Positions 22,590 to 64,000 of a stretch of 64,000 nt of DNA are shown one piece after another (positions within the stretch are counted from its first letter, which is position 1; each line of letters begins with the position of its first letter). This stretch comes from Paraescarpia echinospica (Eukaryota; Annelida; Polychaeta; Sabellida; Siboglinidae): the NCBI GenBank assembly GCA_020002185.1, contig CM034539.1:28946950-29010949 (forward strand), in the 5' to 3' direction. A program made the translations under genes and the position numbers. The notes beneath the pieces were generated by a model. That model saw only the letters and a program-made list of their open reading frames with translations. It had not been told where the DNA came from and did not search any database.

Positions 22590-23590
22590 ATGCAAGGACC
22601 AATGGATCGGCAGCTGCGCCAGATGAACCAACAAGAGCGTGACACAATTGGCCATCTGTTCAATACAGCCTATTTTACAGCTAAAGAGGAGTACCCATTT
22701 ACAATGTACCCCAATTTGGTATCGCTGCAGAATGAAAATGGTGCAAAAATGGGAGCAATGTACCAGTCGGACAATGCTTGTCGACGGTTTATCCGCTACA
22801 TAAAAGTGTAACGGAGATGGAGCTCATCTATGCTTGACTAGTGGTCGATGGCCAAGTAAGAAACGTGTACGTACGTGTCCAGCCAATCCAACACGCTAAT
22901 GCTGAAGGAATTTATGGAGCCATAAATGAAGCTTTCACTGATCTTGACGTGGATTGGCAATCCAAAGTGGTGGGGGTAGGATGTGATGGAGCTGCCGTCA
23001 ACATTGGGCGTCGCAACAGTGTGTTGACGAGGATACAGGACGGGCATCCGTATGTGATCCCAATGCACTGTGTGGCGCATCGCTTGGAACTACGAGTCAT
23101 TGATGCTGCCAAAGACAGGGTTTGTCCACAGTTTGGACAAGTTCACGACACATTGAAGCTGATTTACAAACATTATGAATACAGCCCGAAAGCCACAAGA
23201 GACTTAAAGGCTGTAGCGGAGGCCATGGGACAGAAAACCATGCGACCTACCGGTCTGAAGGGAACACGATGGACTCCCCACTTCGTGACAGCGTTGACCA
23301 CTCTGCTGAAGTCGTACGCCAGCATTCGCGTGCACTTCAAGCATACGTGGAGTGTTCCACTGGGGCAGCTGAGGTGCTCGGACGGGCAAGAAATGTCTTG
23401 AAGACCCTCAGTGAATTTTCAAAGATGGCGTGGATGCACATGGTGCTTGACATCATGGCTGTACTGGGCCAACCGAGTCGTCTTTCAGAGGGACGAGACA
23501 ACCATCATTGATGCTCTCCGAGGACAGAATACGTCTGAAGACTGGACTGTGGACTCACTAAATATGTTCTTTCTATATGTTTTCAGTCAA
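22590..23590 (+). pseudogene. hAT transposase relic (KIAA1586/ZNF862-like type)
   Basis: Frame 22590-22811 has HLFNTAYFTAKEEYPFT and LQNENGAKMG, the N-terminal wording of KIAA1586/ZNF862-like hAT proteins. Frame 22841-23401 has VGVGCDGAAVNIGRRNSV (the first catalytic Asp region) and MHCVAHRLEL (the hAT CxxH motif), followed by LKGTRWTPH. The reading then changes frame near 23345 and again near 23480, and ends at 23592 with no C-terminal dimerisation domain. At least three frame breaks make it inactive. A C-terminal domain of a related protein is found separately at 45940-46371. Confidence 0.85.
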
Positions 23591-23823: not shown

Positions 23824-26699
23824 TTAACCCTCTCGTGGTCAGAACGCCCGAATCAACCCGAGTATGCCTCACGGCCAGAACGCCCGAATCAACCCGAGTA
23901 TGCCTCACGGCCAGAACGCCCCAGGACGCCCAGCAACGGGTGCCGTTTTTAAACTGCGTATACATAAATAGTGTTGGCCAATATGGCGTTTCCTTCCGCT
24001 AGTCAGCAGTTAATATACTCAAGGTTGACTGGCTAGTTTCAAAATGTTTAAATCTAAGATTTCCAAGCATAAATATGAGTTTTATCGGCACGTTTTTTCG
24101 AAGTTCGTTCTGGAATACTGAAATTTATTCAAGTACGGAACAACTTTTAAAACTACATTTAGGTCACGTATTTTCAGCCAATCAAATAAAAGCCTGTTAT
24201 TTACTGCGGGCTGATAACATAATCTGGGTCAACATGGTTTCAAAACATGAAAACGCCGGCGATTTCTACGATTAAAAGGTAAGTTTTTAGAGTTCTATTT
24301 TGTGTACAGCGGTATTATTGCGCAGCGTTTTTGAGCGGTGTTTTTTTAAAACTGGTTTTCCTAACAAATATGGACGTCATCATGTCCGAGTCAAGTGAAT
24401 CGGAATTTGAGGGATTTTTGCCCGACGAAAGTTTCGATATCGATATTGTGAATGACGCTGACAGGGAAGAAGATACTGCCGACATCGACAGTGACAGCGA
24501 CATAAGCGTTGGGGAAGATGTCCCCGACGGCGCAGAAGATGGTGACGACACTGATGGTACCGATCATACCTTCAGTGATCGCACTCACAGCGTTAACATC
24601 CCTCCATTTACTCAACCGACTGGGCCAAGACATTCCTTGCTATTTGATGCCTCAGAAGTGGCCTACTTCTTCCTGTTGATCACCGTCGACATGATCTTAC
24701 ACGTTGTCAACGAGACAAACCGTTATGCGGCCTAGTGCCAGGCAGCCAGAGGATTCCGTGATCCGGCATGGTACGACACGCAGGTAAAAGAGATGAGGGC
24801 ATACATCGCTCTGAACATCATGATGGGAATACATATCCTGCCAGAGCTAGATATGTATTGGTCATCAGACGACTACCTTGGTGTTATTGGCATCATGAAG
24901 GTGATGACCAAGAATCGGTTCAAGAAACTAACACAGTATTTCCATATCAATGACAATAGCACTGCAGTGGCACGAGGTGAGGCTGGATATGATCCTCTTC
25001 ACAAGATTCGCCCCCTGATTTCGGCAACATCCAACACTTTTGCCCGGAGATACCGCCCTGGACGTGATTTGTCTATTGATGAGGCGATGGTCGCATTCAA
25101 GGGTCGATGTTTCTTTAGACAGTTTATGCCAGCCAAGCCCGTCAAGTGGGGATTTAAAGTGTGGACGATTGCAGAATCAAAAACCGGCTATGTTTCTGGT
25201 TTCGAAATTTACACTGGACGCCGTATAGCTCCTTCACCAAATGGCCTGGGGTACGACGTAGTCATGAGTTTGACGGAGGTATATCAGTACCAGTGTCGTC
25301 ATCTATATTTTGACAATTTCTTTTCCTCGATACCTCTCATGCGTGACCTGGAGGAGCGTCTTACATATGCGTGTTCGACAGTGCGTTCAAACAGGAAGGG
25401 CTTGCCACCAGTCATAAAAGAACCTGGTCAGATGCAACGTGGTGAAAGCATTAAACTGCAGTGTGGAAACATGTTGGTGCTTATCTGGCATGATAATCGT
25501 GGTGTCCGAATGCTGAGCACCAACTCCAATCCGGTGGATGGTGTTGTCCAGAGGCGAGTGGGCAAGGAGAAGGTGCCTGTGCCATGTCCTGACAGCATCA
25601 TCAAGTACAACGCTAACATGGGTGGCGTTGACTTGGCCGACCAGAACCGATCGTACTATAGCGTTGGTCGCGAATCAACCAAGTTCTGGCGTTACCTGGC
25701 ATGGTACTTGTTCAACACAGCAATCATCAACAGTTACATCATCTACACTCACTCACTTGCACGCCCACTTACACGCAAACAACACACAGTGACACACCTG
25801 AAATACAGAATACAAGTAGTGAAACAGCTCATCGCCGGATTCTGCAGCAGAAAGAGAGCAGGACGCAAGGCCGTGAACCCGCCAGTCATGGACACGTCTA
25901 ATATGCTGGGACACGACCTTGTAAAGATGGGCAAAAAACTCGTTTCAACTGCAGCCAGTTGAAACGAAAGACTGAGCGAGGCCGTGGTATTACCACCACG
26001 TGGAAGTGCAGGGCGTGCGATGTTCCACTGTGCCGGGATGGTTGCCTGGTACAGTACCACACCCGTCACATGATGAAAGATTGACGTTCACATTCGCCAC
26101 ATGATGAAGGACTAATGTTTACTTTGCCGGGATGGTTATTTGATGTTTCTGCAGTTGGTAGTTGCGGTTCATGAGTTCAATTAATTAATAAAGATGTTTC
26201 AACGTTTCTGATGTTTCATGTCAATTTTATCGAAAATCTGGAAATGACGTGCATTCAGAAAAAATAATGTAATTTCTGTTTCGTGTACACTATACAAGAA
26301 TTTATTTTTGCATTTTGCAGCTTATTAATTTATCTACATTTCATACACAGCATGTATCCGCTAATTATTAGCAGAAAATATTTTTTTAAATGGATTACCA
26401 AGAATAATTTTTATAAACTCATTTTTTTCAGAATTTCACGAAGCATATTTTGTTACTAAATTCACATACAGCTTTCATTTTTGGCTATTTACTTCAGCAG
26501 TTATTTATCTAACTGCTGTGCAAAGGTTATTTTAATTGAATAAAAAAATTACACACATTCATGCAACCTGAGCCAGTTACAGAATCTGTTCACCATGTCA
26601 TTTCATGATTTAATAGAATTCTCTAGGACACAATGTACTGAAACAATACAATTCAGCAGCAGGCACATTTTGGCATTAATCTGGCCTTGAAAGAGTTAA
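23824..26699 (+). mobile_element. piggyBac element with TTAA ends
   Basis: TTAA tetranucleotides lie at 23824-23827 and 26696-26699. The inner ends match as inverted repeats: ccctctcgtggtcaga on the left and, in reverse complement, ctctttcaaggccaga on the right. Inside the left end, the 32-bp block ggtcagaacgcccgaatcaa and its continuation is repeated. The element is 2876 bp long and holds one plus-strand transposase gene. Removal of the insert restores a contiguous hAT end, which supports insertion after the hAT element. Confidence 0.9.
24370..26083 (+). pseudogene. piggyBac transposase, one nonsense codon and a late frameshift
   Basis: The frame opens at ATG 24370 (or 24331) with an acidic Ser/Asp-rich N-terminus, as usual for PGBD/piggyBac proteins. 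A single in-frame TAG at 24733-24735 interrupts it (CAG to TAG is the simplest change) and the frame continues to 25962. The DDE-like catalytic residues are all present: SIDEAMVAFKG, YFDNFFSS, and GGVDLADQ with two Asp. After a one-base frameshift near 25945 another frame carries the C-terminal Cys-rich domain, with C-x2-C-x5-C-x3-C-x5-H (WKCRACDVPLC and following), ending at 26083. Two small lesions in about 570 codons indicate recent inactivation. Confidence 0.9.
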
Positions 26700-47215: not shown

Positions 47216-49100
47216 AGCAAACATTTTCAGGATATGGTCACTGCCAGAGTTATTCGCATCTGTGTACTTTGTCATAAGAGACACAGCTGGACAACAGAAC
47301 GACTGGACAAGGAAGGAGATATGGAAGGAGTATTTCTAAGGATAGAACTTGGACACTGTACGTGACCTCCTACTGTAGACAGAAGGCTGTCCTGATGGTC
47401 TTACTGACATAGACACTGTACGTGACCTCCTACTGTAGACAGAAGGCTGTCCTGATGGTCTTACTGACATGGACACTGTACGTGACCTCCTACTATAGAC
47501 AGAAGGCTGTCCTGATGGTCTTACTGACATGGACACTGTACGTGACCTCCTACTGTAGACAGAAGGCTGTCCTGATGGTCTTACTGACATGGACACTGTA
47601 CGTGACCTCCTACTGTGGACAGAAGGCTGTCCTGATGGTCTTACTGACATGGACACTGTACGTGACCTCCTACTGTAGACAGAAGGCTGTCCTGATGGTC
47701 TTACTGACATGGACACTGTACGTGACCTCCTACTGTAGACAGTAGGCTGTCCTGATAAGCTTACTGACATGGACACTGTACGTGACCTCCTACTGTAGGC
47801 AGAAGGCTGTCCTGATGGTCTTACTGACATGGACACTGTACGTGACCTCCTACTGTAGACAGAAGGCTGTCCTGATAAGCTTACTGACATGGACACTGTA
47901 CGTGACCTCCTACTGTAGACAGTAGGCTGTCCTGATAAGCTTACTGACATGGACACTGTACGTGACCTCCTACTGTAGACAGAAGGCTGTCCTGATGGTC
48001 TTACTGACATGGACACTGTACGTGACCTCCTACTGTAGACAGAAGGCTGTCCTGATAAGCTTACTGACATGGACACTGTACGTGACCTCCTACTGTAGAC
48101 AGTAGGCTGTCCTGATAAGCTTACTGACATGGACACTGTACGTGACCTCCTACTGTAGACAGAAGGCTGTCCTGATGGTCTTACTGACATGGACACTGTA
48201 CGTGACCTCCTACTGAAGACAGAAGGCTGTCCTGATGGTCTTACTGACATGGACACTGTACGTGACCTCCTACTGTAGACAGAAGGCTGTCCTGATGGTC
48301 TTACTGACATGGACACTGTACGTGACCTCCTACTGTAGACAGAAGGCTGTCCTGATGGTCTTACTGACATGGACACTGTACGTGACCTCCTACTGTAGGC
48401 AAAAGGCTGTCCTGATGGTCTTACTGACATGGACATTGTATGTGACCTCCTTCTGTAGACAGAAGGCTGTCCTGATAAGCTTACTGACATGGACACTGTA
48501 CGTGACCTCCTACTGTAGACAGTAGGCTGTCCTGATAAGCTTACTGACATGGACACTGTACGTGACCTCCTACTGTAGACAGAAGGCTGTCCTGATGGTC
48601 TTACTGACATGGACACTGTACGTGACCTCCTACTGTAGACAGAAGGCTGTGCTGATGGTCTTACTGACATGGACACTGTATGTAACCTCCTACTGTAGAC
48701 AGAAGGCTGTCCTGATGGTCTTACTGACATAGACACTGTACGTGACCTCCTACTGTAGACAGAAGGCTGTCCTGATAACCCTACTGACATGGACACTGTA
48801 CGTGACCTCCTACTGTAGACAGAAGGCTGTGCTGATGGTCTTACTGACATGGACACTGTACGTGACCTCCTACTGTAGACAGAAGGCTGTCCTGATAATC
48901 TTACTGACATGGACACTGTACGTGACCTCCTACTGTAGACAGAAGGCTGTCTTGATAATCTTACTGACATGAAAACTGTCAGAGTCTGTGTACTTTGTTA
49001 TAAGAGACACAGCTAAACAACTAGACAACCGCACAAAGAGGAACTTGTTGAAGGAGTATTTCTAAGGATGAAATCTGGACACTGGATGCCAGCAGTAAGT
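47216..49100 (+). repeat. Repeat family flanking the 60-bp satellite
   Basis: The left flank (47216-47345) and right flank (48975-49070) share cagagttatt(c)gcatctgtgtac, gtcataagagacacagctg and aaggagtatttctaaggat. Related copies occur at 49220-49340, 53360-53470 and 53530-53645. The plus strand reads a loose IRICVLCHKRHSWTTE peptide that is not maintained in all copies. Confidence 0.75.
47341..48970 (+). repeat. 60-bp satellite, about 27 units, with higher-order structure
   Basis: Every unit is exactly 60 bp: gacactgtacgtgacctcc, tactgtagacagaaggctg, then tcctgatggtcttactgacatg. Because 60 is a multiple of 3 and the unit has no stop on the minus strand, a 544-codon frame with a 20-residue repeat (SVRPSGQPSVYSRRSRTVSM) spans the array. 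Variants agtagg and ataagc recur in a three-unit order at 47761-48120, giving a 180-bp higher-order repeat. The minus-strand frame has no start context or domain, so I treat it as an artefact. Confidence 0.95.
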
Positions 49101-49853
49101 ACTGGGCCAGGTTAATCAGTCGCTGCACCGATTGCACTGTGGCCTGTCATGTGCCCGATTCACAAGACTTTTAATTTTATTTAAGTGAGTCTACCTCCTG
49201 AAACATGTATATATAACGTAATAGCGAATGTCCAGAGTTATCCACATCTGTGTACTTAGTCAAAAGAGACACGGCTGGACAACTGGACGACTGGACAAAG
49301 AGGGAGATGTTGAAGGAGTATTTCTAAGAATGGAACTTGGACATTATGATGTTTTCGTTCTTTTAAAACAAGTATCCGACTAAAAACAAGATAAGCTATT
49401 TCTACACTTAACAGTACAACCTGAATACAACTATATGCGTAATTGTTCTAGTTGTGTTTGTAGATGTTCGTGTGAATCGCTGCGCCATCTATCAAGATCA
49501 AACTGAAGTGATGTGATACTGAATGAAAATTAAATTAACACTAGAAAAAGAAACAACCAAAGAACAAGCAACGTTACTAAAGAAACAATGTAGATTGGAT
49601 ATCAGAACGTATTAATTCTCACAAAGGATTATGATTGATTAGTAAATGGAACAAATGATCTGCATGTTTTGTAAAGCAGCGTGACTATGTTTAAAACAAA
49701 TCTGACAAATATCTCAGAAGGAAGAGTTACACAAAGATACAACAGATGTTAGACTCTTGACACGCCTTAGGCTTCTTTGTACACTTGTCATCTGGGTGCT
49801 TTGTCCTTGTTAAACTTATGAAATGCTTGTGAAAAGATTGATCCTATTTTGGG
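49101..49853. other. Repeat flanks, no gene
   Basis: 49220-49340 is another copy of the satellite-flank family. 49590-49731 matches 53925-54066, which defines the left edge of the unusual element at 54067. Confidence 0.7.
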
Positions 49854-50894
49854 TTGATTACAAGTAGATGTCACACATCCAGAATGTTCTATCGACACAC
49901 AGTCAACAAGATGTCACGTGTCATCCAGGATGTTTTGTCTTCACACTGTCAACAAAATGTCACGTCTCATCCAGGACATTCTGTCCACATGCTGTCAACT
50001 AGTTGTCACGTCTCATACAGGACGTTCTGTCTACTCACTGTCAACAGATGGCACGTCTCATCTAGGACATTCTGTCTACATGGTGTCAACAACATGTCAA
50101 GTCTCATACAGGAAGTTTCGTCTACACACTGTCAAAAAGATGTCACGTCTCATCCAGGACATTCTGTCTACACACTGTCAACAAGACATCACGTCTCATC
50201 CAAAACAATCAGTCTGCACACTGTCAACAAGATATCACGTCTCATCCAGGACATTCTGTCTACACACTGTCAACAAGACGTCACGTCTCATCCAGGACAT
50301 TCTGTCTACACACTGTCAACAAGATGTCACGTCTCATCCAGGACGTTCTGTCTTCACACCGTCAACAAGATGTCACATCTCATCCAGGACATTCTGTCTA
50401 CACACTGTCAACAACATGTCACGTCTCATCCAGCACAATCTGTGTACACACTGTCAACAAGTTGTCACTTCTCATCCAGGACATTCTGTCTACATACTGT
50501 CAACAAGGTGACACGTCTCATCCATGATAATCTGTCTACACACTGTCAACAAGATGTCACGTCTCATCCAGGACGTTCTGTCTTCACACTGTCAACAAGA
50601 TGTCATGTGTCATCCACGATAATCTGTCTTCACACTGTCAACAAGATGTCACGTCTCATCCAGAACGTTCTGTCTACACACTGTCAACAAGATGAAACGT
50701 CTCATCCAGGACAATCTGTCTACACACTGTCAACAAGATGTCACGTCTCATCCAGGACATTCTGTCTACACACTGTCAACAAGATGACACATCTCATCCA
50801 GGACATTCTGTCTACACACTGTCAACAAGTTGTCACTTCTCATCCAGGACATTCTGTCTACACACTGTCAACAAGATGTCACGTCTTTCGATGA
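49854..50894 (+). repeat. 46-bp minisatellite, third array
   Basis: About 22 units of the tgtcaacaagatgtcacgtc type. Three plus-strand frames are open across it because 46 cycles through all frames and the unit has no stop, so a 346-codon frame results with a 46-residue repeat. The flanks differ from the two other arrays, so this may be an independent expansion or a transposed one. Confidence 0.9.
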
Positions 50895-53830: not shown

Positions 53831-54159
53831 AGGGTCTTCAGACACCTGAATCTCCACCCCCAAAGTCCAACTCACCACCCGATGTGCTGAACCAGAGAAC
53901 ATGCAATGTTACGGAAGAAATGATGTAGATTGGATATCAGAAAGTATTCATTCTCACAGAGGACTATGATTGATTATTAAATGGAACAAATGATCTGCAG
54001 GTTTTGTAAAGCAGCGTGACTATGTTTATAACAAATCTGACAAATATCTCAGAAGGAAGAGTTACAGTAGTAATATAGGTGGTCTAACGTAGAGGTTGGA
54101 TTCGGATTGGAGGAAGAGGAATGTGACGTCATATCCAGGTCAAGATCACGTACCCGGGC

Positions 54160-54450
54160 GTAGGTCAAGTGGCACCACCTGGCGGATAGGCCATGAACTA
54201 AAACAGTGCCACCTGGCGGATATCTAAAACTAAATTCCCCCTGGCTAAATTTTTATGAACTAAAACAGCACCGCCTGGCGGAATTTTTATTAAAAAAAAT
54301 TCCCTGGTGGATTTTTTTGTTAACTAAATTTCCCCTAGCGGATAAGTCGTGAACTACAATAGTGCCACCTGGCGGAATTTCCATAAACCATTTCCCCTGG
54401 CAGATAAACCGTGAACTACAATTGGTGCCACCTATCGGACAAGGGTTGAA
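54160..54450 (+). repeat. Degenerate cctggcgg repeat near the element's left end
   Basis: The words gtgccacctggcgga and tgaactaaa/tgaactaca recur about five times at spacings of 40-95 bp (near 54167, 54207, 54269, 54362 and 54424), mixed with ttcccctggc variants. It resembles the repetitive terminal zones of integrated DNA viruses or large transposons. Not coding. Confidence 0.7.
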
Positions 54451-54579
54451 CTAAATATCGATACTGCTTAAATTTGTGCCTCTTGTTTTTGTTAAGTGCT
54501 TACTCCTGGTGGATATATCATCATCATCAACTGAAAGTACCCCTGTTAGATAAGTGGTGAACTAAATAACTACTCTGCA

Positions 54580-54767
54580 GTCCGCGTGCAGTCTGCGCGT
54601 GCGTATATTCTACACTGCAGTCCGTGCTTTTTAATGTTCTACTCTACAGTCCTTGATCTTTCGGCATGCCCACGTGACTTTTCGGCACATTTACTAACTA
54701 TATAAGCGCGGTGTTTTGCCAATCGGACCGTCATTCGTATCACGACGACAGCACGGCTAACATCATC
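54580..54767 (+). promoter_or_regulatory. Promoter P1 of the RPA-like gene
   Basis: Contains the words ctctgcagtccgtgctttt, the E-box CACGTG at 54671-54676 and TATATAAG at 54699-54706, 28 bp from E-box start to TATA start. It is closely similar to P3 (57130-57264), including cacattcactaac and ccatcattcgtatcacgacgac after the TATA. The likely transcript start is about 54730. Confidence 0.85.
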
Positions 54768-55326
54768 ATGTTGAAGACACCTTACTACCGACCTCGCAAT
54801 GCGGCAGACTCGAGCGATGAGGACGAGCCGAACCATCATGCCGGTGATCAACCGTCCTTCCAGGCCGTCAGAACCAGACGTCGTGGAAATCTCAGCTCTA
54901 GAAGCAACGGTAAGCGCCGACGCCGTTATAAAGATCAGAGATCTCCTCATCGACAAAGTACGCCAGCATACTCCCTTCTACATCGGGTGAAGATACTGCA
55001 AGAACCGTATGATTGTCAACGATAGGGGACATTTACAATGCGAACGACACGGTTACATTGCCTCTGACATGCATTTCTTAGTGCGCATGTGCTTTGTCGA
55101 GACAGCGACGGGTCGATCTATATGGCTGACTTTGTTCGACCAGTGTATGGCTGTTCTCCTAGACGTGAATGCCGAGACGTTTGCTGTTATGGATGAAACG
55201 ATGCAGACTTACAAACTGAACTCACTGACGGGAACTTGTGTGTCTCTCACCATAAAGAAAACTCGACGAGATACTTACACAAACTTCAACGTCACTCACG
55301 TGGAGGTGATGGAGGTGATACACTAG
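54753..55326 (+). pseudogene. RPA-like single-strand DNA-binding protein (OB fold with zinc site), damaged
   Basis: A leader frame starts at ATG 54768 (LKTPYYRP, then SSDEDEP), homologous to the leader of the NADAR gene. The homologous start codon position at 54753 is ACG instead of ATG. The domain follows in another frame: EISALEATVSADAVIKIRDLL, FYIG, an in-frame TGA (54988-54990), RYCKNR, then CERHG, IWLTLFDQ and LLDVNAETF. This order matches the C-terminal OB fold of RPA large subunits, where a C-C-C-C/H zinc site precedes a tG-iwvtlFd strand and a sA-e helix. The TGA stands where the first zinc Cys is expected. Probable role: single-strand DNA binding in replication or recombination of the element. 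Frameshift, stop and start-codon loss make it inactive as read. Confidence 0.7.
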
Positions 55327-55372
55327 GCTCTGTACCCTGTTTCAGCCTCTCTCTGCTGCCATCCCTGCCGAT

Positions 55373-55834
55373 GTGACAACTTCCGCCGACACGGCCGATG
55401 TGACAATTTCTACTCATGCAACCAATGTTACAACTGCCGCTCCTGTCGCCATTGGTCCGAACTTTACGCTTAAGTTTCCTGCGACCGAAATGGTGAAGAC
55501 AATTGCACGTCACACAGCGTGTGCCGTTGTTGAACTCTCAAGACGACAATGTCTCGCTTGCGAGATAGACGATCCTAGTCAATTTCATCACGATTGTATG
55601 TTACCCGATGACATTCTAATTTATATGTACTTTGACAAGGCTGTGGAGGCTATTAATTCAACTGCAGTGATAAAAGACTGGTTGAGTGTTTTGTTAGACG
55701 CAGGTTTGAAGCTATCCGACCTGACGTCCGATCACTTGTGTACTATCGGGAGTTGGTTGCAAGAACCGTTTTCAGAGGAGTGGCAAAACAAATTAAAGCA
55801 AATTGTTCTGGCAGTAATGGAGGATGATCTGTAA
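55373..55834 (+). CDS. Small Cys/His protein with C-x2-C...PSQ-x2-H-x-C motif
   Basis: A 153-codon frame. The N-terminal 40 residues are Thr/Ala-rich. Residues 44-75 carry AVVELSRRQCLACEIDDPSQ and then FHHDC, giving C60-x2-C63, H73 and C75 as a likely zinc site. The rest is acidic and helical (YMYFDKAVEAI, DWLSVLLDAGLKLSDL) and ends with an acidic EDDL. I associate C-x2-C-I-x-PSQ-x2-H-x-C proteins with uncharacterised mobile-element proteins of marine invertebrates but cannot name the family. A tttcag acceptor-like site at 55346-55351 suggests it might be a downstream exon of the RPA-like gene or share its transcript. The aataaa signals are at 55836 and 55930. Confidence 0.6.
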   Translation: MTTSADTADVTISTHATNVTTAAPVAIGPNFTLKFPATEMVKTIARHTACAVVELSRRQCLACEIDDPSQFHHDCMLPDDILIYMYFDKAVEAINSTAVIKDWLSVLLDAGLKLSDLTSDHLCTIGSWLQEPFSEEWQNKLKQIVLAVMEDDL

Positions 55835-55889
55835 ATAAATCTGTCTTGTAGTTTTATGAGACCTTTGGCGATATTAATTCAACTGCAGT

Positions 55890-55980
55890 GAATGGAGCGC
55901 GACCTGTAAATACGTTTGTGTTGCACACGAATAAAATGTTCAAACCTTATATTGTCATTTTTCGAAGTATAAGTAGTATA
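55890..55980 (+). terminator. Shared 3' end with polyadenylation signal, copy 1
   Basis: gtttgtgttgcacacgaata, then aaatgttcaaaccttat and a T-rich stretch. The same sequence ends the NADAR gene at 62788-62860. AATAAA is at 55930-55935 with a downstream T/GT-rich element. Confidence 0.8.
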
Positions 55981-56004
55981 AGTACCGTGCATCTTAGTCT
56001 CTTT

Positions 56005-56289
56005 CAAAGATGTCATTAAATAGGTAATTGCGCATGTTGATTGCCCGGATGCAAACTGGTATGAACTGGTATTCGATGCACAAGTCTGAATTACTCTACA
56101 GTCTATGCGTGTGTAGTTTCTACTCGGCGGTCCGTGGTTTTGTACTTTCTACTCTGAGGTTCGTGCTTTTGTACTTTCTACTCTGAGGTCCACGTTCTTA
56201 CTCGGTACGCCCACGTGACCTCTATGTTCTGTCGAACTGGTATAAAAGACCTGTCAGCTATTGTGGCCATTATATCTTACATCTTGAAA
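56005..56289 (+). promoter_or_regulatory. Promoter P2 of the small basic gene
   Basis: Begins with cattaaataggtaattgcgcatg, also at 56705, and contains three units of a 25-30 bp motif (tttctactctgaggtccgtg, tgcttttgtac). The E-box CACGTG is at 56212-56217 and TATAAAAG at 56241-56248, spacing 29. It resembles the first half of P3. Confidence 0.8.
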
Positions 56290-56625
56290 ATGGGTTCTAT
56301 TTCATCAACCGACAACGTCCGAGATATTGCTACCGACAATGTCCGAGATATTGCTGGAGGTAACAAGCGATGGCACCCGGCGACCGACCCGTGTGACTGT
56401 CAACTTGCTAAGCGAATGTATCCGTCACTGACCACATCCAACCACTGCAAGGAGATACGACCCCTCTTGAGGTTGTCTATCGAGAAACTCCATGAGATGT
56501 GCAAGACACGCAAGATCCACAACCCGGAGTCTTACCTCCAACGCTCCGTGCTCATCGAGAACACACTGTCCCGGATAAAGCGCGAACAACAACAGGAACT
56601 CGTGTGTTCATCATCATCATCATAA
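56290..56625 (+). CDS. Small basic protein, unrecognised (weak SAP-like segment)
   Basis: A 111-codon frame from ATG 56290, chosen because it lies 42 bp after the P2 TATA box in the same layout as P1 and P3. It opens with a short internal repeat (DNVRDIA twice), then DPCDCQLAKRMYPS and a basic helical part (LRLSIEKLHEMCKTRKIHN, SYLQRSVLIENTLSRI) and ends with a run of Ser. The helical part is loosely like a SAP DNA-binding helix pair, but this is weak. The ORF is intact. Confidence 0.5.
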   Translation: MGSISSTDNVRDIATDNVRDIAGGNKRWHPATDPCDCQLAKRMYPSLTTSNHCKEIRPLLRLSIEKLHEMCKTRKIHNPESYLQRSVLIENTLSRIKREQQQELVCSSSSS

Positions 56626-56699
56626 GAAAAATTCGACGAGATACCAAGAAACGGTTCTTTTCAGAGGCATTTTAGAAATTTTTTTAAAATAGGTCAAAG

Positions 56700-57264
56700 A
56701 CGCCATTAAATAGGTAATTGCGCATGTGCAATGGTGTCACATTCTTTCGGACATCTTTATCAACAAAATCAAGGTCTCCCTATCATTTAACATTCGTCAG
56801 TGCTATAGTTTTTAGTCAGTGCTATAGTTTTTACATAGGACATTTGGACTTATCTCAGTTGATTGGCTTGTCGCAAACTGGTTTGAACTGGTATTCGATG
56901 CACAAGTCTGATTTACTCTACAGTCTATGCGTGTGTACTTTCTACTCTGCGGTCCGTGCTTTTGTACTTTCTACTCTGCGGTCTGTGCTTTTGTACTTTC
57001 TACTCTGCGGTCTGTGCTTTTGTACTTTCTACTCTGAGGTTCGTGCTTTTGTACTTTCTACTTTGAGGTCCGCCTTCTTACTCGGCACGCCCACGTGACC
57101 TTTATGTTCTGTCGACCTGTTATAAAATACAGTCCGTGGATGTGTACTTTCTACTCTGCAGTCCGTGCTCGTTCGGCACGCCCACGTGACTTTTCAGCAC
57201 ATTCACTAACTATATAAGCACGGAGCTCTACCAGTCGAACCATCATTCGTATCACGACGACACC
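56700..57264 (+). promoter_or_regulatory. Promoter P3, a composite of P2-type and P1-type modules
   Basis: 56700-57130 repeats the P2 layout with five to six units of tactttctactctg(c/a)ggt, an E-box at 57092-57097 and a TATAAAAT at 57121. Directly after it comes a P1-type module with an E-box at 57183-57188 and TATATAAG at 57211-57218 (spacing 28). The leader ATG follows at 57265 in a strong caccatggg context. This suggests promoter modules were shuffled or that an intervening P2-driven gene was deleted. Confidence 0.8.
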
Positions 57265-57467
57265 ATGGGTAACATCATGTTGGAAACACCGAACTACCAC
57301 TCTCTTGCGGCATTCAGCGACAGCGACGTAGACGAACCGTGTTGCCGACCGTTCGTGGCATCTGGCAGCCGATCACAGTCACTGGATGTCAACCGACCAC
57401 CATCACCATTGTACCACGATAGCGCCATTCACAAAACAGCCAACTACCATGCTCCTGCAGCCTTCTA
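57265..57467 (+). pseudogene. Leader exon of the NADAR gene, cut by a retrotransposon
   Basis: Begins MGNIMLETPNYHSLAAFSD, with SDSDVDEP, then a Ser/Pro-rich stretch and a second partial copy of the leader motif (TANYHAPAAF) where the frame meets the insertion. The continuation (VDKPTSRPF and SSVNQP) resumes at 62115 after the inserted element. The acidic SD-DEP leader is shared with the RPA-like gene. Confidence 0.75.
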
Positions 57468-58303
57468 AAATGACTTCGGAGTTAAGTGCGCATGGGTCAG
57501 GTGCAGTCGTATCTTTTAGTGGTTCTTGTGTTTATCGTTAACATCACGAATTTTTAAAACTTTTATAAATTCAAACTTACAGATGTTTAATAGCATCACT
57601 ATTAGAACATAATCTTCTAATTACATTTCCGATCAAACCCCCCTAAACTACGTTTTGTCAAATTGGCTTGCTTGGCAACCGGTTCCGAATATGGATCAAG
57701 ATGGCGCGGATGTAAACAATAAGCACTAAAGGCGCGCGTAACTAAAATCCCCCCAAACACAACTCAGATAACAGCGCATTTCTTCAAAACTTAATATAAT
57801 ATGAACTAAACAGATATTGAGTACATTAAACTACCTCCAATTATATACAACCTAGCTTAAAACATACATACACAGTTTTAGGTTAAAACACCATTTTGTT
57901 TATCATCCTACCCATCTAGCTTCCACCCTCTGAACTAACAGGCCAATCTTCGGGTGTATCATTGTCGGGACACTAACACCCCTGTGTTTTTCAAATACCC
58001 AGAGGTTCTGAGTCGGCCCAGAACCGAAAATAACATTACTATCTGACTATTTGTGTTGTTTGCACAAGCCCTCAAGCCCTGCACATGCACATTATTTTCT
58101 TTATAATTCATGGTTTATATTTTTAGTTCATATTTACTGTATTTTTAACTCATATAAAGGCAAGTTTTTTACAAGCTAATATTTTTAAGTGCATTAAATT
58201 ACAGCACTACAATAAAAAAAATTATACCTATTAAAAATCTATGGTTAGAACGCTCCATTTGCTTAGTGAGCATAAATATTAAAAAATTCTCCCAACTCTC
58301 AAC

Positions 58304-59212
58304 ATGACAACTCTGTTACTGCTACTCGGAATTTTTGCCATACTCACAGCCCCAAACAAGAGTTACAGCTCCAATACAGGTGACAGGATGTCCAAATCAG
58401 AATATCCTAGTCTGCAAGTTGACACAACTCTGGCTTCCTTTCTCCATAAACCTCAAATGACTGGTAATTCCCATATTGAGGAAGGGCCCAACAATACTAC
58501 TAACGTCAGCAACACCTTAAATTTCAGCGAAAGTGTTGGCAAGTGGAGTATAACTCTCTATATAATCTCTAAACAGAAATCCCGTTTCTGTCCCCAAATC
58601 CTGAAATTCAAAGCCAACCATTATCATCTGTTATTGATCATACTTCTCGCTGGCCAAATCGAAACAAACCCTGGACCAGTTAGTCTCTATAGTTCTGAAT
58701 CTTTATATCCTTATGGAGTATGCAGATATGAAGTAAAGGAAGATGACAGAGCACTCCTGTGTGACAAATGTGAACTCTGGTACCATACCAAATGCATAGA
58801 CACCCCCAAAATCGAATACAGCATCATGAGAAACATATCAAGCTTCTCATGGATCTGCTGCCAATGTGGTTTTCCAAATTTTGATTCGTCAGTATCTCAA
58901 ACCCAATCAGTCGCCACTACAAACCCCTTTTCACTGCTCTCTGAACTTGATGACACTAATGACAATGATTGTATAAATGATGCAGATAATATGCACCCAA
59001 AAACCTCAACTCCATCCAAAGGTTCGTCTGGTACTCGTAACACGCCTACCATCAAAAACAAAAAACATGGTCTCAGGGCAATGACCATAAACTGTAACAG
59101 TATAAAAAGCGCGACTAAACAAGCAGCCTTCCGTGTAACAATCGATCAACACCAACCAGAACTCATATTGGGTTGTGAATCCAAATTAGATAGTGTAGTT
59201 TTCTGGGAATAG
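58304..59212 (+). pseudogene. Retrotransposon polyprotein, N-terminal part: signal-like start, 2A-like motif, PHD finger
   Basis: The first 20 residues are hydrophobic (MTTLLLLLGIFAILTAP), resembling a signal sequence. Residues 109-125 read LLLIILLAGQIETNPGP, a 2A-like ribosome-skipping motif with Gln in place of the usual Asp before I-E-x-NPGP. Residues 140-188 form a PHD-type zinc finger (CDKCELWYHTKC, then SWICCQCGF), but the first Cys pair is incomplete, with Tyr at the first position. The endonuclease begins near residue 262 with LRAMTINCNSIKS. An in-frame TAG at 59210-59212 stops it; the same frame continues into the next part. Confidence 0.85.
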
Positions 59213-60628
59213 TTCATATGTAGCCATATCGCTGTCTACCGCAAAGATCGCAATGCAAATGGAGAAGTCTTTATTGCCACCAAAGACTGCCTCATTACCT
59301 CTGATGAACCTGAATTAGGCGAAAACTGCGAAATTATCTGGGCAAGCATGCAATTCAGAGACTCTAAACCGCTATATCTGGCCAGTTATTATAGACCACC
59401 AGGCAACAAAACTCAGTCACTAGACGCCCTAATCTCATCAGTAGCCAAGACTATCAATAAAAACCCACGCCAGCACCCTAACTTAATAATTGGAGGGGAC
59501 TTCAATCTACCAGATATGAACTGGACCGACTGGTTGACAACAAATACTAACACTAAAGCAATGCACGAGAAATTCATCAACTTCTTACTTGATAACTCGC
59601 TTTCTCAACTAGTTACCAGCACCACAAGACCTGTCTCAAATAGCATCCTGGACCTTCTGGTTACATCAAATCCTAATCTCATAGACAACATACAGGTGCT
59701 TCCAGGCATTTCTGATCACTGTATTGTACTGTTTGATATCAATATGAAACCTAAGTTACAAAAGAAACCACAAAGAAAGATATACCTCTATGACAGAATT
59801 GACCCCAAAACACTGCAAACCAAAGTGCATGATTTCGTCAACAACTTCTTAGCCTCAAACCCTGAAGAACAATCAGTCAACACAAACTGGGAAACAATTA
59901 GAAATGGACTGGACAAAATTGTGGATGACAATGTTCCATCAAAACTCACTAAAGGAAAACGAAATCTACCTTGGATAAAATCTGAAATCAAGCATAAGAT
60001 GAGAAAACGTGATAAATTGTTCTCAAAAGCCCATAAAACAAACACCCCATCAGATTGGAAAGCCTATCGTGAATATCGCAACTATGTTACAAAATGTATC
60101 CGCTCAGCACACCACGATTATGTCAACAACATAATTGGCAAGAATATGACTGAAAATCCAAAATCTTTCTGGTCATACGTAAAACTCACTCGCGCAGAAA
60201 ACCTAGGAATCCCAACACTTAAAACTTCTGATAAAATGTGCAGCACAGATCACGATAAGGCGGAGGCATTGAACATGCATTTCCAAAGTGTATTTAATAA
60301 GCAGACACATACACAAACGCACAGTAAAGGTCCATCTCCATATACCTCCATTCCTCACTTACACATCACAACTGCCGGCATAGCCAAACAATTATCTAGC
60401 CTAAGCCCATCAAAAGCATGCGGTCCTGATGAAATGTCACCTCGTTTCCTTAAAATTGTTGCAAATGAACTAGCTCTGGCTCTTAGATGTCTATTCCAGC
60501 AATCCTATAACCAAGAAACAGTCCCAAAACAGTGGCGCAAAGCACTAATTACAGCAATTCATAAGAGCGGTCCAAAATCAGACGCCTCCAACTACCAAAC
60601 CCATATCCTTGACCTGCTTGTGCTGTAA
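59213..60628 (+). pseudogene. Retrotransposon polyprotein: endonuclease, linker and start of reverse transcriptase
   Basis: In frame with the preceding part. It has AVYRKDRNANGEVFIATK, SYYRPPG, IIGGDFNLPDMNW and GISDHCIVLFD (the catalytic DFN and SDH). A linker follows with KHKMRKRDKLFSKAHKT and the KSFWSYVK wording seen at 33.9 kb. The reverse transcriptase starts with ACGPDEMSPRFLK. Near 60597 a small indel shifts the frame in the NYRPISL region. Confidence 0.9.
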
Positions 60629-61909
60629 AATCATGGAACACATAATCCTAAGTCATGTCGCCAAACATCTTAACACTCATAACATCCTTATTTATGAACA
60701 ACATGGATTCAGAAACTGCCTCTCAACAACAACACAACTCATAAACTCAACTAATGACTGGTCAGAAACACTAAATAAAAAAAGTCAGACTGATGTAATC
60801 TTACTAGACTTCAGTAAAGCGTTTGATAAAGTTGCTCATCACCACCTATCAGATAAATTAAACTACTACGGCATCCGAAATAACACTCTTGGCTGGATCA
60901 ATAGCTTCTTATCCCACCGTATACAATCTGTTTCAGTCAATGGCACACATTCTTCCTGGGCTAATGTCACTTCCGGAGTTCCCCAGGGATCTGTCCTGGG
61001 GCCAGTCCTATTCCTTCTATACATAAACGACATCAAGGAACAAATAAATTCAACAATCAAACTCTTTGCAGACGACAGCATCCTATACAGAGAAATAAAT
61101 AACACAAATGATCAACATATATTACAAAACGATTTAGAAACCCTCACAACGTGGACTAAGAAGTGGTCAATGAATTTCAATGTTATGAAATGTGCAGTCC
61201 TCACCATCACACGCAAACGAAACCCCAAACTATATCAATATACATTACTGGGAAAATCACTAAACCATGTTCAAAAGCACGACTACCTTGGAGTCACAAT
61301 ATCACATGACCTAAGATGGAATGATCACTGCACCAAAATAACCACCAAAGCCAGCCGCACACTCTTAAGAAGAACACTGTCACCTTGCTCACAAAATGTC
61401 AAAGAAACAGCTTATCAAACCCTTGTCCGACCACAAGTTGAATATGCCAGCGAAGTCTGGAATCCCAAAACAGCAACAGAAATTAACCGCATAGAACAAA
61501 TCCAAAGAAATGCAGCAAGATTATCTTCTCCGACTACCGAAAGGATACACATATTAAACTACTCATAAACAAACTCAACTGGGACTCGCTCCACACACGT
61601 CGCCTCATTCAACAAGCATCAATGTTTTACAAAATCCACTACCACATGATCAACATCAGTCCTCCGCCATGTTTCCAGCATGCCACACATATCTCCAACA
61701 GAATTGACCATCCACTTAAATATACCAACACAATAATTCCAACCATCAATGCATATAAATATGCATTCTACCCCAGAGCAGCATCCATATGGAACAGACT
61801 CCCACCATCTGCTGTTCTACACATCACGCCATCACTGCCAGCCTTCCTGTGTGTCGCCATGTCAGCCATCAGGGAAATGCAACCCTTGCATGGCGTCCAC
61901 ATCCTTTAA
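60590..61909 (+). pseudogene. Retrotransposon polyprotein: reverse transcriptase core and C-terminus
   Basis: The frame to 61568 reads YEQHGFRNCLSTTTQLI, VILLDFSKAFDKVAHHHL (motif A), SGVPQGSVLGPVLFLLYIND and IKLFADDSILYRE (motif C, FADD), then YLGVTISHDLRWNDH. Near 61530 a second frameshift moves the reading to the frame that ends at 61909, with INAYKYAFYPRAASIWNRLPPS, the usual C-terminal end. All catalytic Asp residues are present, so inactivation is recent. Confidence 0.9.
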
Positions 61910-62114
61910 AGCTACGAACTTATGTATATAGTGCACCACTTGTTCTTATCCACGCTTTTGTTTGTTTTTGTTGGTTTTCATTGTTTTTCTTTCTTTAATT
62001 TGAACAATCTTCTACATGATTTTTTCCCTTTTTGTTCGACTGCCCTGACGTTACGCACCGCTCAAATCCCAGTTTAGCTGTGAACAGCTATAAAGGGATT
62101 ACTACATCAAGCAA

Positions 62115-62694
62115 GCAACGTAGACAAACCAACTAGCCGACCGTTCGAAGCATCTGCCAGCCGTCCACATTCATCGTCTGTCAACCAGCCAGTCGTACCG
62201 TCAAGCCTGTACGCACCGGAACCGGAACCTCGACCCGAACTGGAGGTCGCTGTGAAACCGAAACGAGTTGAATTTTCAGGGGCCGACTCTCCCTTGTCAA
62301 ACTTTTACCCATGCAGGGTCGAAGCATTCGGTCGGGTCTTTAATTCGGTCGAGCATGCCTATCTATACAGGAAGGCATTGTATCATGGCAACGTCGAATG
62401 CACAGAGCGCATCAAAGCTGCGAAGCATGCACACTTGGCAAAACTAAAAAAGCAAACAGACTGGAGACGAGATCTGGTTGGAACGATGTCCGTGTTGACT
62501 GGATGCGACATTTGCTCCTCGCAAAGTTCAAGGCGTCAAAGGATTTGTGAGCCATATTGTTGGCAACCGGAAATGCTGAACTGGTGGAGCGTGTACCATC
62601 GAAAGAGGGCTTTTGGGGACTTGGTCGTGGCTACAAAAATGGACGAAACACTCTCGGAAAACTATTGTGCAGTGTCCGCGACAATTACTTGTAG
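62115..62694 (+). pseudogene. NADAR-family (ADP-ribose N-glycosidase-like) protein, damaged
   Basis: After leader-type sequence the frame gives FSGADSPLSNFYPCRVEAFG, then NSVEHAYLYRKALYHGN, the N-terminal signature of NADAR/YbiA-like (DUF1768) proteins with the conserved Glu-His and Lys. Near 62480 the frame changes. The other frame gives WMRHLLLAKFKASKDL, a TGA at about 62548, then LLATGNAELVERVPSKEGFW, GLGRGYKNGRNTLGKLL and a stop at 62692-62694, the family's C-terminal FWG-G and G-N-LG signature. NADAR enzymes cleave N-glycosidic bonds, including ADP-ribose from modified bases or nucleotides. Three lesions (retrotransposon, frameshift, nonsense) make it inactive. Confidence 0.85.
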
Positions 62695-62774
62695 ACACTG
62701 CGTTGTGTAATGTCCACAGTTCATTGCAAGACTCTGTGTCATAGCAGTGACGAAACAATGTTCATTCTCTTGTT

Positions 62775-62862
62775 CTTGTAGTTATGGAGCATGACGTTTG
62801 TGTTATACACGAATAAAATGTGCAAACCTTATCTTGTGTCTTTTTTCGTAGTGTAATACAAT
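62775..62862 (+). terminator. Shared 3' end with polyadenylation signal, copy 2
   Basis: gacgtttgtgttatacacga, then ataaaatgtgcaaaccttat and a T-rich tract. It is homologous to 55895-55975 after the Cys/His gene. AATAAA is at about 62813. Confidence 0.8.
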
Positions 62863-62990
62863 CCACCACAATGGACAGGTTTACCTCGTGAAATTCCACC
62901 GCTTCCACCACAATGGACAGGTTATCGCGTTAAATTCCACCGCTTCCACCACAATGGACTGGTTATCGCGTGGGACATACAATCGATCAC
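62863..62990 (+). repeat. 42-bp tandem repeat, about three copies
   Basis: ccaccacaatggacaggtt starts at 62863, 62905 and 62946, each followed by a (c/t)cgtgaaattccaccgctt type segment. Confidence 0.85.
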
Positions 62991-63813
62991 AGGAAGAGTG
63001 TTCAAGAGAGATCATATGGGGAATATTCTGTCCATTATTTAACAGAAATATATGAAATGACAAATAAAATCGTGTTGATACTATGGATGAGTGTGTTTGT
63101 TTTTAGTTTTCATAATCATCAAGATACACCTCACTTTTACCTGTTTCAGTGACAACAATTCATTGCTGAAATCACTTGTCCTGACGCTCACTACGACATC
63201 TGTGTAACACCAAACACTTATACCAAAGAGTGACAAGAACCAAACTTGTCGGACAAACGAAACACCAAACACTTAGATCAACGAGCGACAAGAATCAAAC
63301 ATCACATACCTTCATGTCAAGAGACGATCATCTGTTCGGATTCACATCCAACGAGACGACCATAGGACTCGTATGAAGTATCGCTTCTTTTAATGGAAAA
63401 CATATGTATATGAAACATCCGTCTTTACAACGTAACAATTCTATATTTACAAATAGTGCGAGCGATCAGACACGATACGACCTTCTCGAGAGTCGAAAAA
63501 GGAAAGACCGGAATCGTCAGAAGTATGGTATATACACTAGTTTTCGGCGTCATCTCATTTGCATAACCAATCAGACCGAACGTACATCACGTGACTTCCC
63601 TTAACACAAAAACTGTGCACGTTCATGAGAGGCGACATCCGACGCCACTCAACGGACACCAATGTAATTAGTCAGAGTATTACCATCTACCAGCCATGAT
63701 AGATCTCTATTCGTTGACACACTTCGTTCCTAGTAGAGGCTGCCATAGCAAGCGAATTTGAAAACTGCTGACCGTGTCTGTATTCACTCGTTTGTGGTGT
63801 GCTGTTAATGTAG
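62991..63813. other. Non-coding part of the element
   Basis: A duplicated phrase, caccaaacacttagatcaac with a gagcgacaagaa continuation, lies at about 63207-63235 and 63262-63295. An E-box CACGTG is at 63588-63593 but has no TATA at the usual distance. No gene seen. The end may be an intron: the next frame begins directly after gttaatgtag. Confidence 0.5.
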
Positions 63814-64000
63814 TTACACTTCACCCTCTTCAACGAAGCGAACAAGGATCTGCACCGTCTCGTTCAATCTCAGATCGTCGGAGGTCCGCCTATCATCTTC
63901 GCGCATCATCACGAGGCCGACGTGACCGTTCTACGCCGCTCCGAGTACGACAAGTCGGCCCACCCCTGTCGCTCGATAGTGGGCTACGATGCGAACGGCC
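63814..64000 (+). CDS. Possible family-B DNA polymerase-like protein, partial, runs off the window
   Basis: An open frame of 62 codons from just after tag at 63811-63813 (perhaps an exon start after a 3' splice site) to the window end. It contains FNEANKDLHRLV, QIVGGPPIIFAHHHEAD and ends with IVGYDANG. The combination of a GGP-IIF...HE region and a GYDAN motif reminds me of invertebrate mobile-element proteins whose YDANALY-like motif corresponds to motif A (DxxSLYP) of protein-primed family-B polymerases. Only the beginning is visible, so this is tentative. Base use is more GC-rich than most of the window. Confidence 0.45.

What the first reader, a model, noticed from the sequence alone, without database searches (positions are those of the whole stretch)
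54067..64000. Left part of an unfamiliar integrated element with virus-like gene organisation
Seen: compact plus-strand genes with TATA promoters and shared flanks, encoding an RPA-like OB protein, a Cys/His protein, a small basic protein, a NADAR protein and a possible polymerase start. The left edge is set by a paralogous empty-like flank at 49.6 kb. Known: RPA-like and NADAR genes occur in large DNA viruses and some transposons. Inference: this is an endogenous virus-like or self-replicating element of a type I do not recognise.
Basis: partly seen in the sequence, partly recalled or inferred. Interest (0 to 1): 0.9.

Follow-up and report, generated by a model that had tools for sequence, protein, structure and literature searches.

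The report
Two-part Maverick virus-like element
The stretch is the worn left arm of a Maverick (Polinton), a known kind of virus-like mobile DNA, but in this animal's genome the family seems to be split into two complementary elements, one with the capsid and integrase genes and one with the DNA polymerase, which would be new for this kind of virus.

Summary
The type is recognisable: a Maverick/Polinton. The edge carries the Maverick end motif (AGTAGT...), present 551 times in the genome (reversed control: 1). Sampled copies show inverted terminal repeats and 6-bp target duplications; relatives encode integrase, double-jelly-roll capsid protein, ATPase, protease and PolB. This copy is decayed: a 4.6-kb LINE splits NADAR, frames are broken, and the 'polymerase start' is an inner, broken piece of PolB from a second Maverick lineage beginning near 63.8 kb. 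Unexpectedly, the family shows two element types with shared arms: capsid/integrase elements without PolB, and PolB elements without capsid or integrase. In capped genome searches, none of 31 open PolB frames lies within 50 kb of a listed capsid or integrase hit, and none of 57 open capsid frames within 16 kb of a listed PolB. Best reading: a bipartite Maverick whose halves complement each other in trans. Rival: satellites of an unsplit parent. The genome is probably a vestimentiferan tubeworm's (inference). Trans-complementation is inferred, not shown.

The parts
54066..56006 (+). Left terminal arm; in the C7 copy the matching 2 kb forms the inverted terminal repeat (86% and 94.7% between arms)
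   Evidence: End motif at 54066; arm matches L011/L012; right limit approximate
54671..54705 (+). E-box + TATA module before the RPA-like gene
54768..55326 (+). RPA1 C-terminal-domain-like gene (Zn-ribbon OB), frame broken in this copy
   Evidence: Pfam PF08646 E 0.004 here (under cut-off), 2.3e-7 in an unbroken copy; 12 open copies, pooled dN/dS 0.45
55373..55834 (+). CH gene: CxxC...DPSQxxHxC protein of unknown family
   Evidence: 10 open copies, pooled dN/dS 0.52
55912..55962 (+). 3' module with AATAAA, repeated after the NADAR gene (62794-62844)
   Evidence: D17, 86%
56212..56247 (+). E-box + TATA module before the SERTA gene
56290..56625 (+). SERTA-motif protein gene
   Evidence: Pfam PF06031 E 1.8e-9, above cut-off
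57183..57217 (+). E-box + TATA module before the NADAR gene
57265..57465 (+). 5' part of the NADAR gene (leader resembling that of the RPA gene)
   Evidence: (D6)
57466..62113 (+). LINE retrotransposon inserted in the NADAR gene (PHD, endonuclease, RT; frames broken)
   Evidence: copy L011 lacks it; ends within a few bases
62114..62710 (+). Rest of the NADAR gene, frame broken
   Evidence: Pfam PF08719 E 9e-4, under cut-off; L011 copy open, E 1.1e-25
62794..62844 (+). 3' module with AATAAA
   Evidence: D17
63172..63725 (+). Further sequence of the same Maverick family (80-93% to pieces of other sampled elements)
63820..64000 (+). Inner piece of PolB of a second Maverick lineage; goes on outside the window (L009) with a stop in frame, followed by RPA-, CH-, UNK-, INT-, mCP-, MCP- and PRO-like genes
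53890..54065 (.). Host repeat flanking the left edge (second copy 49555-49730)

Best explanation
Window 54066 to about 63725 is the left part of an old, decayed copy of the capsid-type half of a bipartite Maverick (Polinton). The family exists as two kinds of integrated element with the same ends. The capsid-type carries RPA-like and CH genes in its arms, ATPase, UNK (PZ-like by position), integrase, minor and major capsid proteins and protease, with NADAR and, in some copies, SERTA genes, but no PolB. The PolB-type carries PolB between the same kind of arms, with an UNK gene (UNK2) near-identical to one found beside the protease of a capsid-type copy, but no capsid, protease, ATPase or integrase gene. 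Proposed mechanism: the integrase of one half inserts both halves through the shared AGTAGT/ACTACT ends; PolB of the other half replicates both from those ends by protein priming; the RPA-like protein coats the displaced strand; the capsid half packages both; the E-box/TATA modules drive the arm genes together. Shown: shared ends and arms, complementary gene sets in the elements read in full, many open PolB and capsid frames lying apart. Inferred: trans-action, packaging, roles of RPA, CH, SERTA and NADAR.
For: Maverick identity: end motif AGTAGTAATATAGGT 551 times vs control 1; AGTAGT...ACTACT is the commonest end motif of vertebrate Mavericks (PMC8097293, passages); exact 6-bp target duplications in 6 of 10 sampled pairs; rve integrase E 2.4e-15, Pox_A32-like ATPase E 8.9e-5 and adenain-like protease E 0.019, the last two under cut-off; capsid protein homologous to P0074 (57%), which hits DJR-like_dom E 1.5e-7. 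Split: two capsid-type elements read in full (L056/57; C7 L011/12) have no hit to any of 6 PolB queries at E 0.01, and two PolB-type elements read in full, both with exact target duplications (L058/59, L062/63), have no hit to capsid, integrase, protease or ATPase queries. Just after the protease of a copy with an open capsid frame comes UNK2, then arm sequence that follows CH elsewhere, and no PolB in 2 kb (L069); just after an open PolB comes the same UNK2 (L070), 98.0% identical over 248 aa. Genome map: 0 of 31 open PolB frames (90-92% to the query; 22 of them on the 14 large contigs) and 0 of 19 of a second class (54-55%; 15 on large contigs) lie within 50 kb of a listed capsid or integrase hit; 0 of 57 open capsid frames (46 on large contigs) lie within 16 kb of a listed PolB, while 41 of 57 have integrase within 16 kb. 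Of the 40 best RPA blocks 14 have listed capsid/integrase nearby, 6 have listed PolB, 0 both, 20 neither.
Against: The map rests on capped lists (scored: 113 of 3996 PolB candidates, 89 of 4590 capsid, 150 of 4883 integrase), and it demonstrably misses genes: of the 20 RPA blocks counted as 'neither', the window's own locus has PolB about 10 kb and capsid about 18 kb away (second lineage, L009), and C3090 (L013) has capsid pieces and, around the copy, PolB of another Maverick. A divergent PolB beside some capsid copies could be missed likewise; only one copy with an open capsid frame was read past its protease, for 2 kb, and no integrase hit was listed near that copy. Three of 89 capsid hits have PolB within 16 kb (two of those PolBs with 5 and 7 stops, one without stops in a 511-residue frame), and 5 of 87 PolB hits of 60% or more have capsid or integrase within 16 kb. 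The second lineage at this locus holds PolB and capsid genes in one row, and L064, a relative from an Escarpia symbiont bin, has all of them on one 11.8-kb contig, so unsplit relatives exist. Neither capsid-type element read in full has matching target duplications, and one has stops in its integrase. No PolB-type copy with an open PolB was read end to end. Nothing here shows packaging or joint transmission.
Confidence: 0.55

Rival explanations
1. Ordinary Maverick family with two kinds of non-autonomous derivative: each lost part of the gene set by deletion and multiplied as a satellite of an unsplit autonomous Maverick (same family or the second lineage) that supplies everything.
For: Unsplit relatives exist: L009/L010 at this locus and L064. 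Five of 87 PolB hits have capsid or integrase within 16 kb. The PolB-type looks like a deletion of the protease-to-integrase block, with a stretch reaching a protease stub left. Concerted loss of capsid genes is described for some Polintons (PMC4028283, passages).
Against: A satellite of a full parent need not keep its genes open, yet 31 PolB and 57 capsid frames without stops were listed, apart from each other; an unsplit member of this family with open frames was not seen within the scored hits, which are capped.
Confidence: 0.32
2. The capsid/integrase element alone is a virophage-like parasite that borrows PolB from other Mavericks, and the PolB-type is a separate capsid-less transposon; the shared arms come from recombination.
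For: A capsid-type copy sits inside the PolB gene of another Maverick in L013: PolB residues 201-281 (L064 numbering) stop at 2440 and resume at residue 280 at 7620. Arms and UNK are mosaic between elements.
Against: The PolB-type lacks an integrase in both copies read in full, so it depends on others too; the dependence looks mutual. The nested case is one copy.
Confidence: 0.09
3. A type of virus or transposon outside known groups.
For: The genes visible inside the window (RPA-like, Cys/His, SERTA, NADAR) are not the usual Maverick core.
Against: End motif, target duplications, integrase, DJR-type capsid protein, ATPase, protease and PolB in copies of the same family.
Confidence: 0.01

Closest known systems
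Maverick / Polinton elements (vertebrate Mavericks of PMC8097293; Polintons of PMC4028283; passages of both)
   Same: AGTAGT/ACTACT ends, 6-bp target duplications, inverted terminal repeats, PolB, rve integrase, packaging ATPase, adenain-like protease, DJR-type major and minor capsid proteins
   Different: Gene set divided between two element types; RPA-like and CH genes in the arms; NADAR and SERTA genes; shared E-box/TATA modules
Capsid-less Polintons (nine elements in PMC4028283)
   Same: Lack capsid protein, protease and ATPase, like the PolB-type here
   Different: Here integrase is missing too in the two copies read in full, and a complementary capsid/integrase type without PolB exists in the same genome
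Bidnaviruses (PMC4061559, search listing only; PMC11071308 and PMC11071296, passages)
   Same: PolB of the Polinton kind; some members have several genome segments
   Different: Bidnaviruses are parvovirus-derived single-stranded DNA viruses with another capsid; I recall no integrase in them
Betatectivirus single-strand binding protein (PMC8276246, start of abstract in a search listing)
   Same: A virus-coded ssDNA-binding protein in a virus with protein-primed replication, the role proposed here for the RPA-like protein
   Different: A phage protein; no sequence comparison was made
Helitrons (recalled)
   Same: Some encode RPA-like proteins
   Different: Helitrons have neither inverted terminal repeats nor target duplications (recalled); these elements have both

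Membership tests
Maverick/Polinton | AGTAGT...ACTACT ends | tested here: met
   Left end at 54066; 551 exact motif matches in the genome vs 1 control; commonest end motif in PMC8097293. Right end of the window's own copy not found in L009/L010
Maverick/Polinton | 6-bp target site duplication | tested here: met
   Exact in 6 of 10 sampled element pairs, one base off in 1, absent in 3, absent too in the C7 pair; so not met in the two capsid-type elements read in full. Not testable for the window's copy
Maverick/Polinton | Terminal inverted repeats | tested here: met
   Clear arms (0.2-3.9 kb pieces) in 9 of 10 sampled pairs, weak in L048/49; about 2 kb in C7
Maverick/Polinton | rve integrase | tested here: met
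   PF00665 E 2.4e-15 in capsid-type C7; no hit in the two PolB-type elements read in full
Maverick/Polinton | Protein-primed PolB | tested here: inconclusive
   No hit in two capsid-type elements read in full (the window element's type); present in the partner type, with DTDS and GYDANGLYL-like motifs in PolB pieces. Pfam gave no PolB family hit to the 4 pieces tested nor to the one; assigned by motif and gene order, motif meaning recalled
Maverick/Polinton | Double jelly-roll major capsid protein | tested here: met
   3183 homologues (120 listed); P0074 at 57% identity hits DJR-like_dom E 1.5e-7; the query itself has no Pfam hit
Maverick/Polinton | Packaging ATPase and adenain-like protease | tested here: inconclusive
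   Pox_A32 22.5 bits vs cut-off 22.8; Peptidase_C5 15.1 vs 21.3, E 0.019; gene order as in L064
Bipartite virus | Two DNAs with complementary genes and common ends | tested here: met
   for the elements read, 130 genome-wide, within the scoring caps and with the misses stated
Bipartite virus | Both halves needed together and both packaged | not testable with these tools
   Needs particles or expression data
Helitron | No inverted terminal repeats, no target duplication (recalled) | tested here: not met
   Both are present

The most novel reading that the evidence does not exclude
A Maverick virus with a divided genome: two independently integrated, separately amplified DNA elements with common ends, one with capsid, packaging and integrase genes, the other with the DNA polymerase, each obligately dependent on the other.
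Probability: 0.52. Interest if true: 0.87.

Novelty: new variant of a known kind. Interest (0 to 1): 0.72.

Why it matters
Mavericks are thought to lie near the root of several groups of eukaryotic DNA viruses (recalled; compare PMC11071308) and the ones that I know of are single DNAs carrying everything. A genome divided over two integrating elements would be a new life style for this group, would make the origin of multipartite DNA viruses testable from genome fossils of both halves, and would give a natural case of mutual dependence between mobile elements in one animal genome. The RPA-like arm gene would be a candidate single-strand binding protein for Maverick replication.

Tried and rejected
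Helitron (RPA-like gene) was considered and rejected: inverted repeats and target duplications are present. A non-Maverick virus was rejected after the core genes were found. The idea that NADAR to polymerase is one gene row was rejected: the polymerase belongs to another lineage, and a LINE splits NADAR. Searches of viral contigs with the PolB piece, capsid alignments and UNK protein gave no relative, nor did phage records with the PolB piece; the RPA-like protein (window piece) found no homologue in the protein database. PHROGs gave one clear hit, for the NADAR protein (phrog_1017, unknown function, E 7.6e-11). Rfam: no match in the window. Structure predictions of the CH and RPA proteins were too poor to use (mean pLDDT 44.8 and 55.5); a fold search with the latter had no match below E 0.001. 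The first dN/dS script stopped with an error after the RPA result and was replaced. Counts rest on lists capped by the tool; coordinates were copied by hand into, and one search used that map plus lists of open frames typed by hand.
Full report
What the window holds. The window lies at C9:28946950-29010949 of a 1.08-Gb eukaryotic genome. Its source is not named. The nearest named relatives of the family's capsid protein are from the tubeworms Ridgeia piscesae (78 and 82%) and Lamellibrachia satsuma (58-65%), and Paraescarpia echinospica has a published assembly of 1.09 Gb with 14 pseudochromosomes (PMC8476170, passages), so a vestimentiferan tubeworm is likely; this is an inference.

Left edge. 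A host repeat ending at 54065 (second copy 49555-49730, 92%) gives way at 54066 to AGTAGTAATATAGGT. The exact 15-mer occurs 270 times on one strand and 281 on the other; the reversed motif once. Among the 100 places that the tool listed I counted by eye 22 convergent pairs 0.5-18 kb apart and fetched 10 of them. Six of the 10 have exact 6-bp target duplications, one is off by one base, three have none. The C7 pair, fetched for its RPA blocks, also has none.

Genes of the arm. In order on the plus strand: an RPA1-C-terminal-like gene, a Cys/His (CH) gene, a SERTA-motif gene and a NADAR gene. The RPA assignment rests on Pfam (2.3e-7 in an unbroken copy, above cut-off) and a weak match to yeast Rfa1 in the PDB (E 0.01). 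In the window copy the RPA frame and the NADAR frame are broken, and a LINE of about 4.6 kb lies in NADAR; copy L011 lacks the LINE and has NADAR open. A CACGTGA...TATA(T/A)AA module stands before the RPA, SERTA and NADAR genes in the window, 4 modules in 54066-57465 against a mean of 0.0015 in 2000 Markov sequences, and before arm genes in several other copies; a 3' module with AATAAA follows CH and NADAR. Pooled dN/dS over open copies: RPA 0.45 (12 frames), CH 0.52 (10), NADAR 0.66 (3), SERTA 0.97 (2), UNK 0.31 (3), ATPase 0.60 (3), protease 0.79 (2), mCP 0.56 (3), MCP 0.15 (3, the second lineage included); one integrase frame only. Past purifying selection is suggested for RPA, CH and UNK (no significance test was made), not for SERTA on two frames.

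The rest of the locus. Family sequence goes on to about 63725; from 63820 PolB of another lineage follows, and beyond the window L009/L010 hold RPA-, CH-, UNK-, integrase-, mCP-, MCP- and protease-like genes in a row. Its RPA and CH proteins are 29% (E 8e-10) and 24% (E 5e-4) identical to those of the first family: the RPA-CH pair is shared by two divergent Maverick lineages. A close relative of this second lineage (L066) and a fuller Maverick (L064) turned up in a symbiont genome bin of Escarpia laminata, most likely as host contamination. L064 carries PolB, ATPase, UNK, integrase, minor and major capsid proteins and protease on one contig.

Maverick membership. The integrase core, the DJR family by a 57% relative, a poxvirus-A32-like ATPase and an adenain-like protease (the last two under Pfam cut-offs) occur in the C7 and C2 elements in the order seen in L064. 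PolB pieces had no Pfam family hit and are named from motifs (GYDANGLYL, DTDS; recalled meaning) and gene context. UNK is PZ-like by position only, after the gene list of PMC8097293.

Two element types. The C7 element (13.5 kb, L011/L012) and the C2 element L056/57 (12.4 kb) carry RPA in both arms, CH in both arms (C7) or one (C2), NADAR, protease, MCP, mCP, integrase, UNK and ATPase; C7 also has SERTA; neither has a PolB hit. The C2 element's NADAR lies in two frames and its integrase has stops. L058/59 (13.3 kb) and L062/63 (11.4 kb), both with exact target duplications, carry PolB (frames broken), UNK, a CH remnant and RPA, in L062/63 only a part of RPA, and no capsid, integrase, protease or ATPase gene found by protein. 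Of the 10 fetched pairs, 1 is capsid-type, 2 PolB-type, 4 have arm or UNK genes or pieces only, 1 has an UNK fragment only and 2 have none of the genes. Tool searches then listed PolB (113 candidates scored of 3996), capsid (89 of 4590) and integrase (150 of 4883). Overlay: capsid with integrase within 16 kb 60 of 89; capsid with PolB 3 of 89; PolB of at least 60% identity with integrase 3 of 87, with capsid 3 of 87, with either 5 of 87, with an RPA block 6 of 87; of 26 PolB of 54-55% none with any. Among 40 RPA blocks 14 have capsid or integrase (two of them the two arms of C7), 6 PolB, 0 both, 20 neither. The overlay misses genes: the window's own block is among the 20, though second-lineage PolB and capsid genes lie about 10 and 18 kb off, and so is C3090 (L013), where capsid pieces and a surrounding PolB of another Maverick are present. 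Restricted to frames without stops (PolB at least 1320 residues, capsid at least 470), 0 of 31 and 0 of 19 PolB frames are within 50 kb of a listed capsid or integrase hit, 9 and 4 of them on unplaced contigs with no such hit; 0 of 57 capsid frames are within 16 kb of a listed PolB, 1 within 50 kb (31 kb), 11 on contigs with none. Two 2-kb looks: after the protease of a copy with an open capsid frame come UNK2 and then sequence that follows CH in the arms (88% over 148 bases, reaching only the last 8 bases of CH in the copy compared); after an open PolB comes UNK2, 98.0% identical in protein, 90.3% over 1134 bases of DNA. L070 is collinear with L059 (91.6% over 1868 bases), so L058/59 looks like an older copy of the same type.

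Why misassembly is unlikely as the cause: two PolB-only elements are closed by matching target duplications on both sides, and open PolB frames on contigs with capsid hits are at least 322 kb from the nearest.

Reading. I take the family to be a Maverick whose genome is divided in two. Mutual dependence follows if both types are active: the capsid-type has no polymerase of its own, the PolB-type no integrase. The alternative, that both are satellites of an unsplit parent, is open because the lists are capped and unsplit relatives exist. A capsid-type copy in L013 interrupts the PolB gene of another Maverick cleanly (residues 201-281 on one side, from 280 on the other).

In print. No paper with both 'Polinton' and 'NADAR' is in the library. 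Searches for Polinton with bipartite or Maverick (12 of 161 listed), segmented genome or multipartite (12 of 124) and single-stranded DNA-binding protein, OB-fold, segmented or nonautonomous (15 of 495) listed no title that describes a divided Maverick or an RPA-like Maverick gene; I did not read all the listed papers, only the top of each list was shown, and most subscription journals are absent. 'Bipartite' in PMC12220804 means a gene-sharing network (passages). Capsid-less Polintons are described in PMC4028283 (passages).

Roles that are guesses: RPA-like protein as strand-displacement binding protein; SERTA protein as a cell-cycle factor (SERTA proteins act on E2F and CDK4, recalled); NADAR on ADP-ribose signals (NADAR domains are known in some retroelements, PMC12477816, passages).

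Noticed in passing
window 57466-62113: LINE with PHD finger, endonuclease and reverse transcriptase, frames broken, sitting inside the NADAR gene.
   Followed up: partly
L013:2147-9985: A capsid-type Maverick copy lies inside the PolB gene of another Maverick: PolB up to 2440, again from 7620, the copy between them shortened.
   Followed up: partly
L064-L068: Maverick contigs sit in bacterial genome bins (symbionts of Escarpia and Bathymodiolus, Breoghania, Poribacteria), most likely host or other eukaryote contamination of GTDB records.
   Followed up: partly
G000:C1:95012841-95013296: The terminal motif recurs ten times at 49-base spacing, as if a Maverick end had become a satellite repeat (listing).
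   Followed up: no
L046/L047 (C1:29102800-29113399): Arms of 3.9 kb that are 99.5% identical and run past the element ends into the flanks: a large palindrome or an assembly artefact.
   Followed up: no
window 47350-48979 and 49876-50886: Long minisatellites with 60- and 46-base units.
   Followed up: no
window 24793-25962 and 22841-23401: Open frames that look like piggyBac-type and hAT-type transposases (by eye, recalled motifs, not tested).
   Followed up: no
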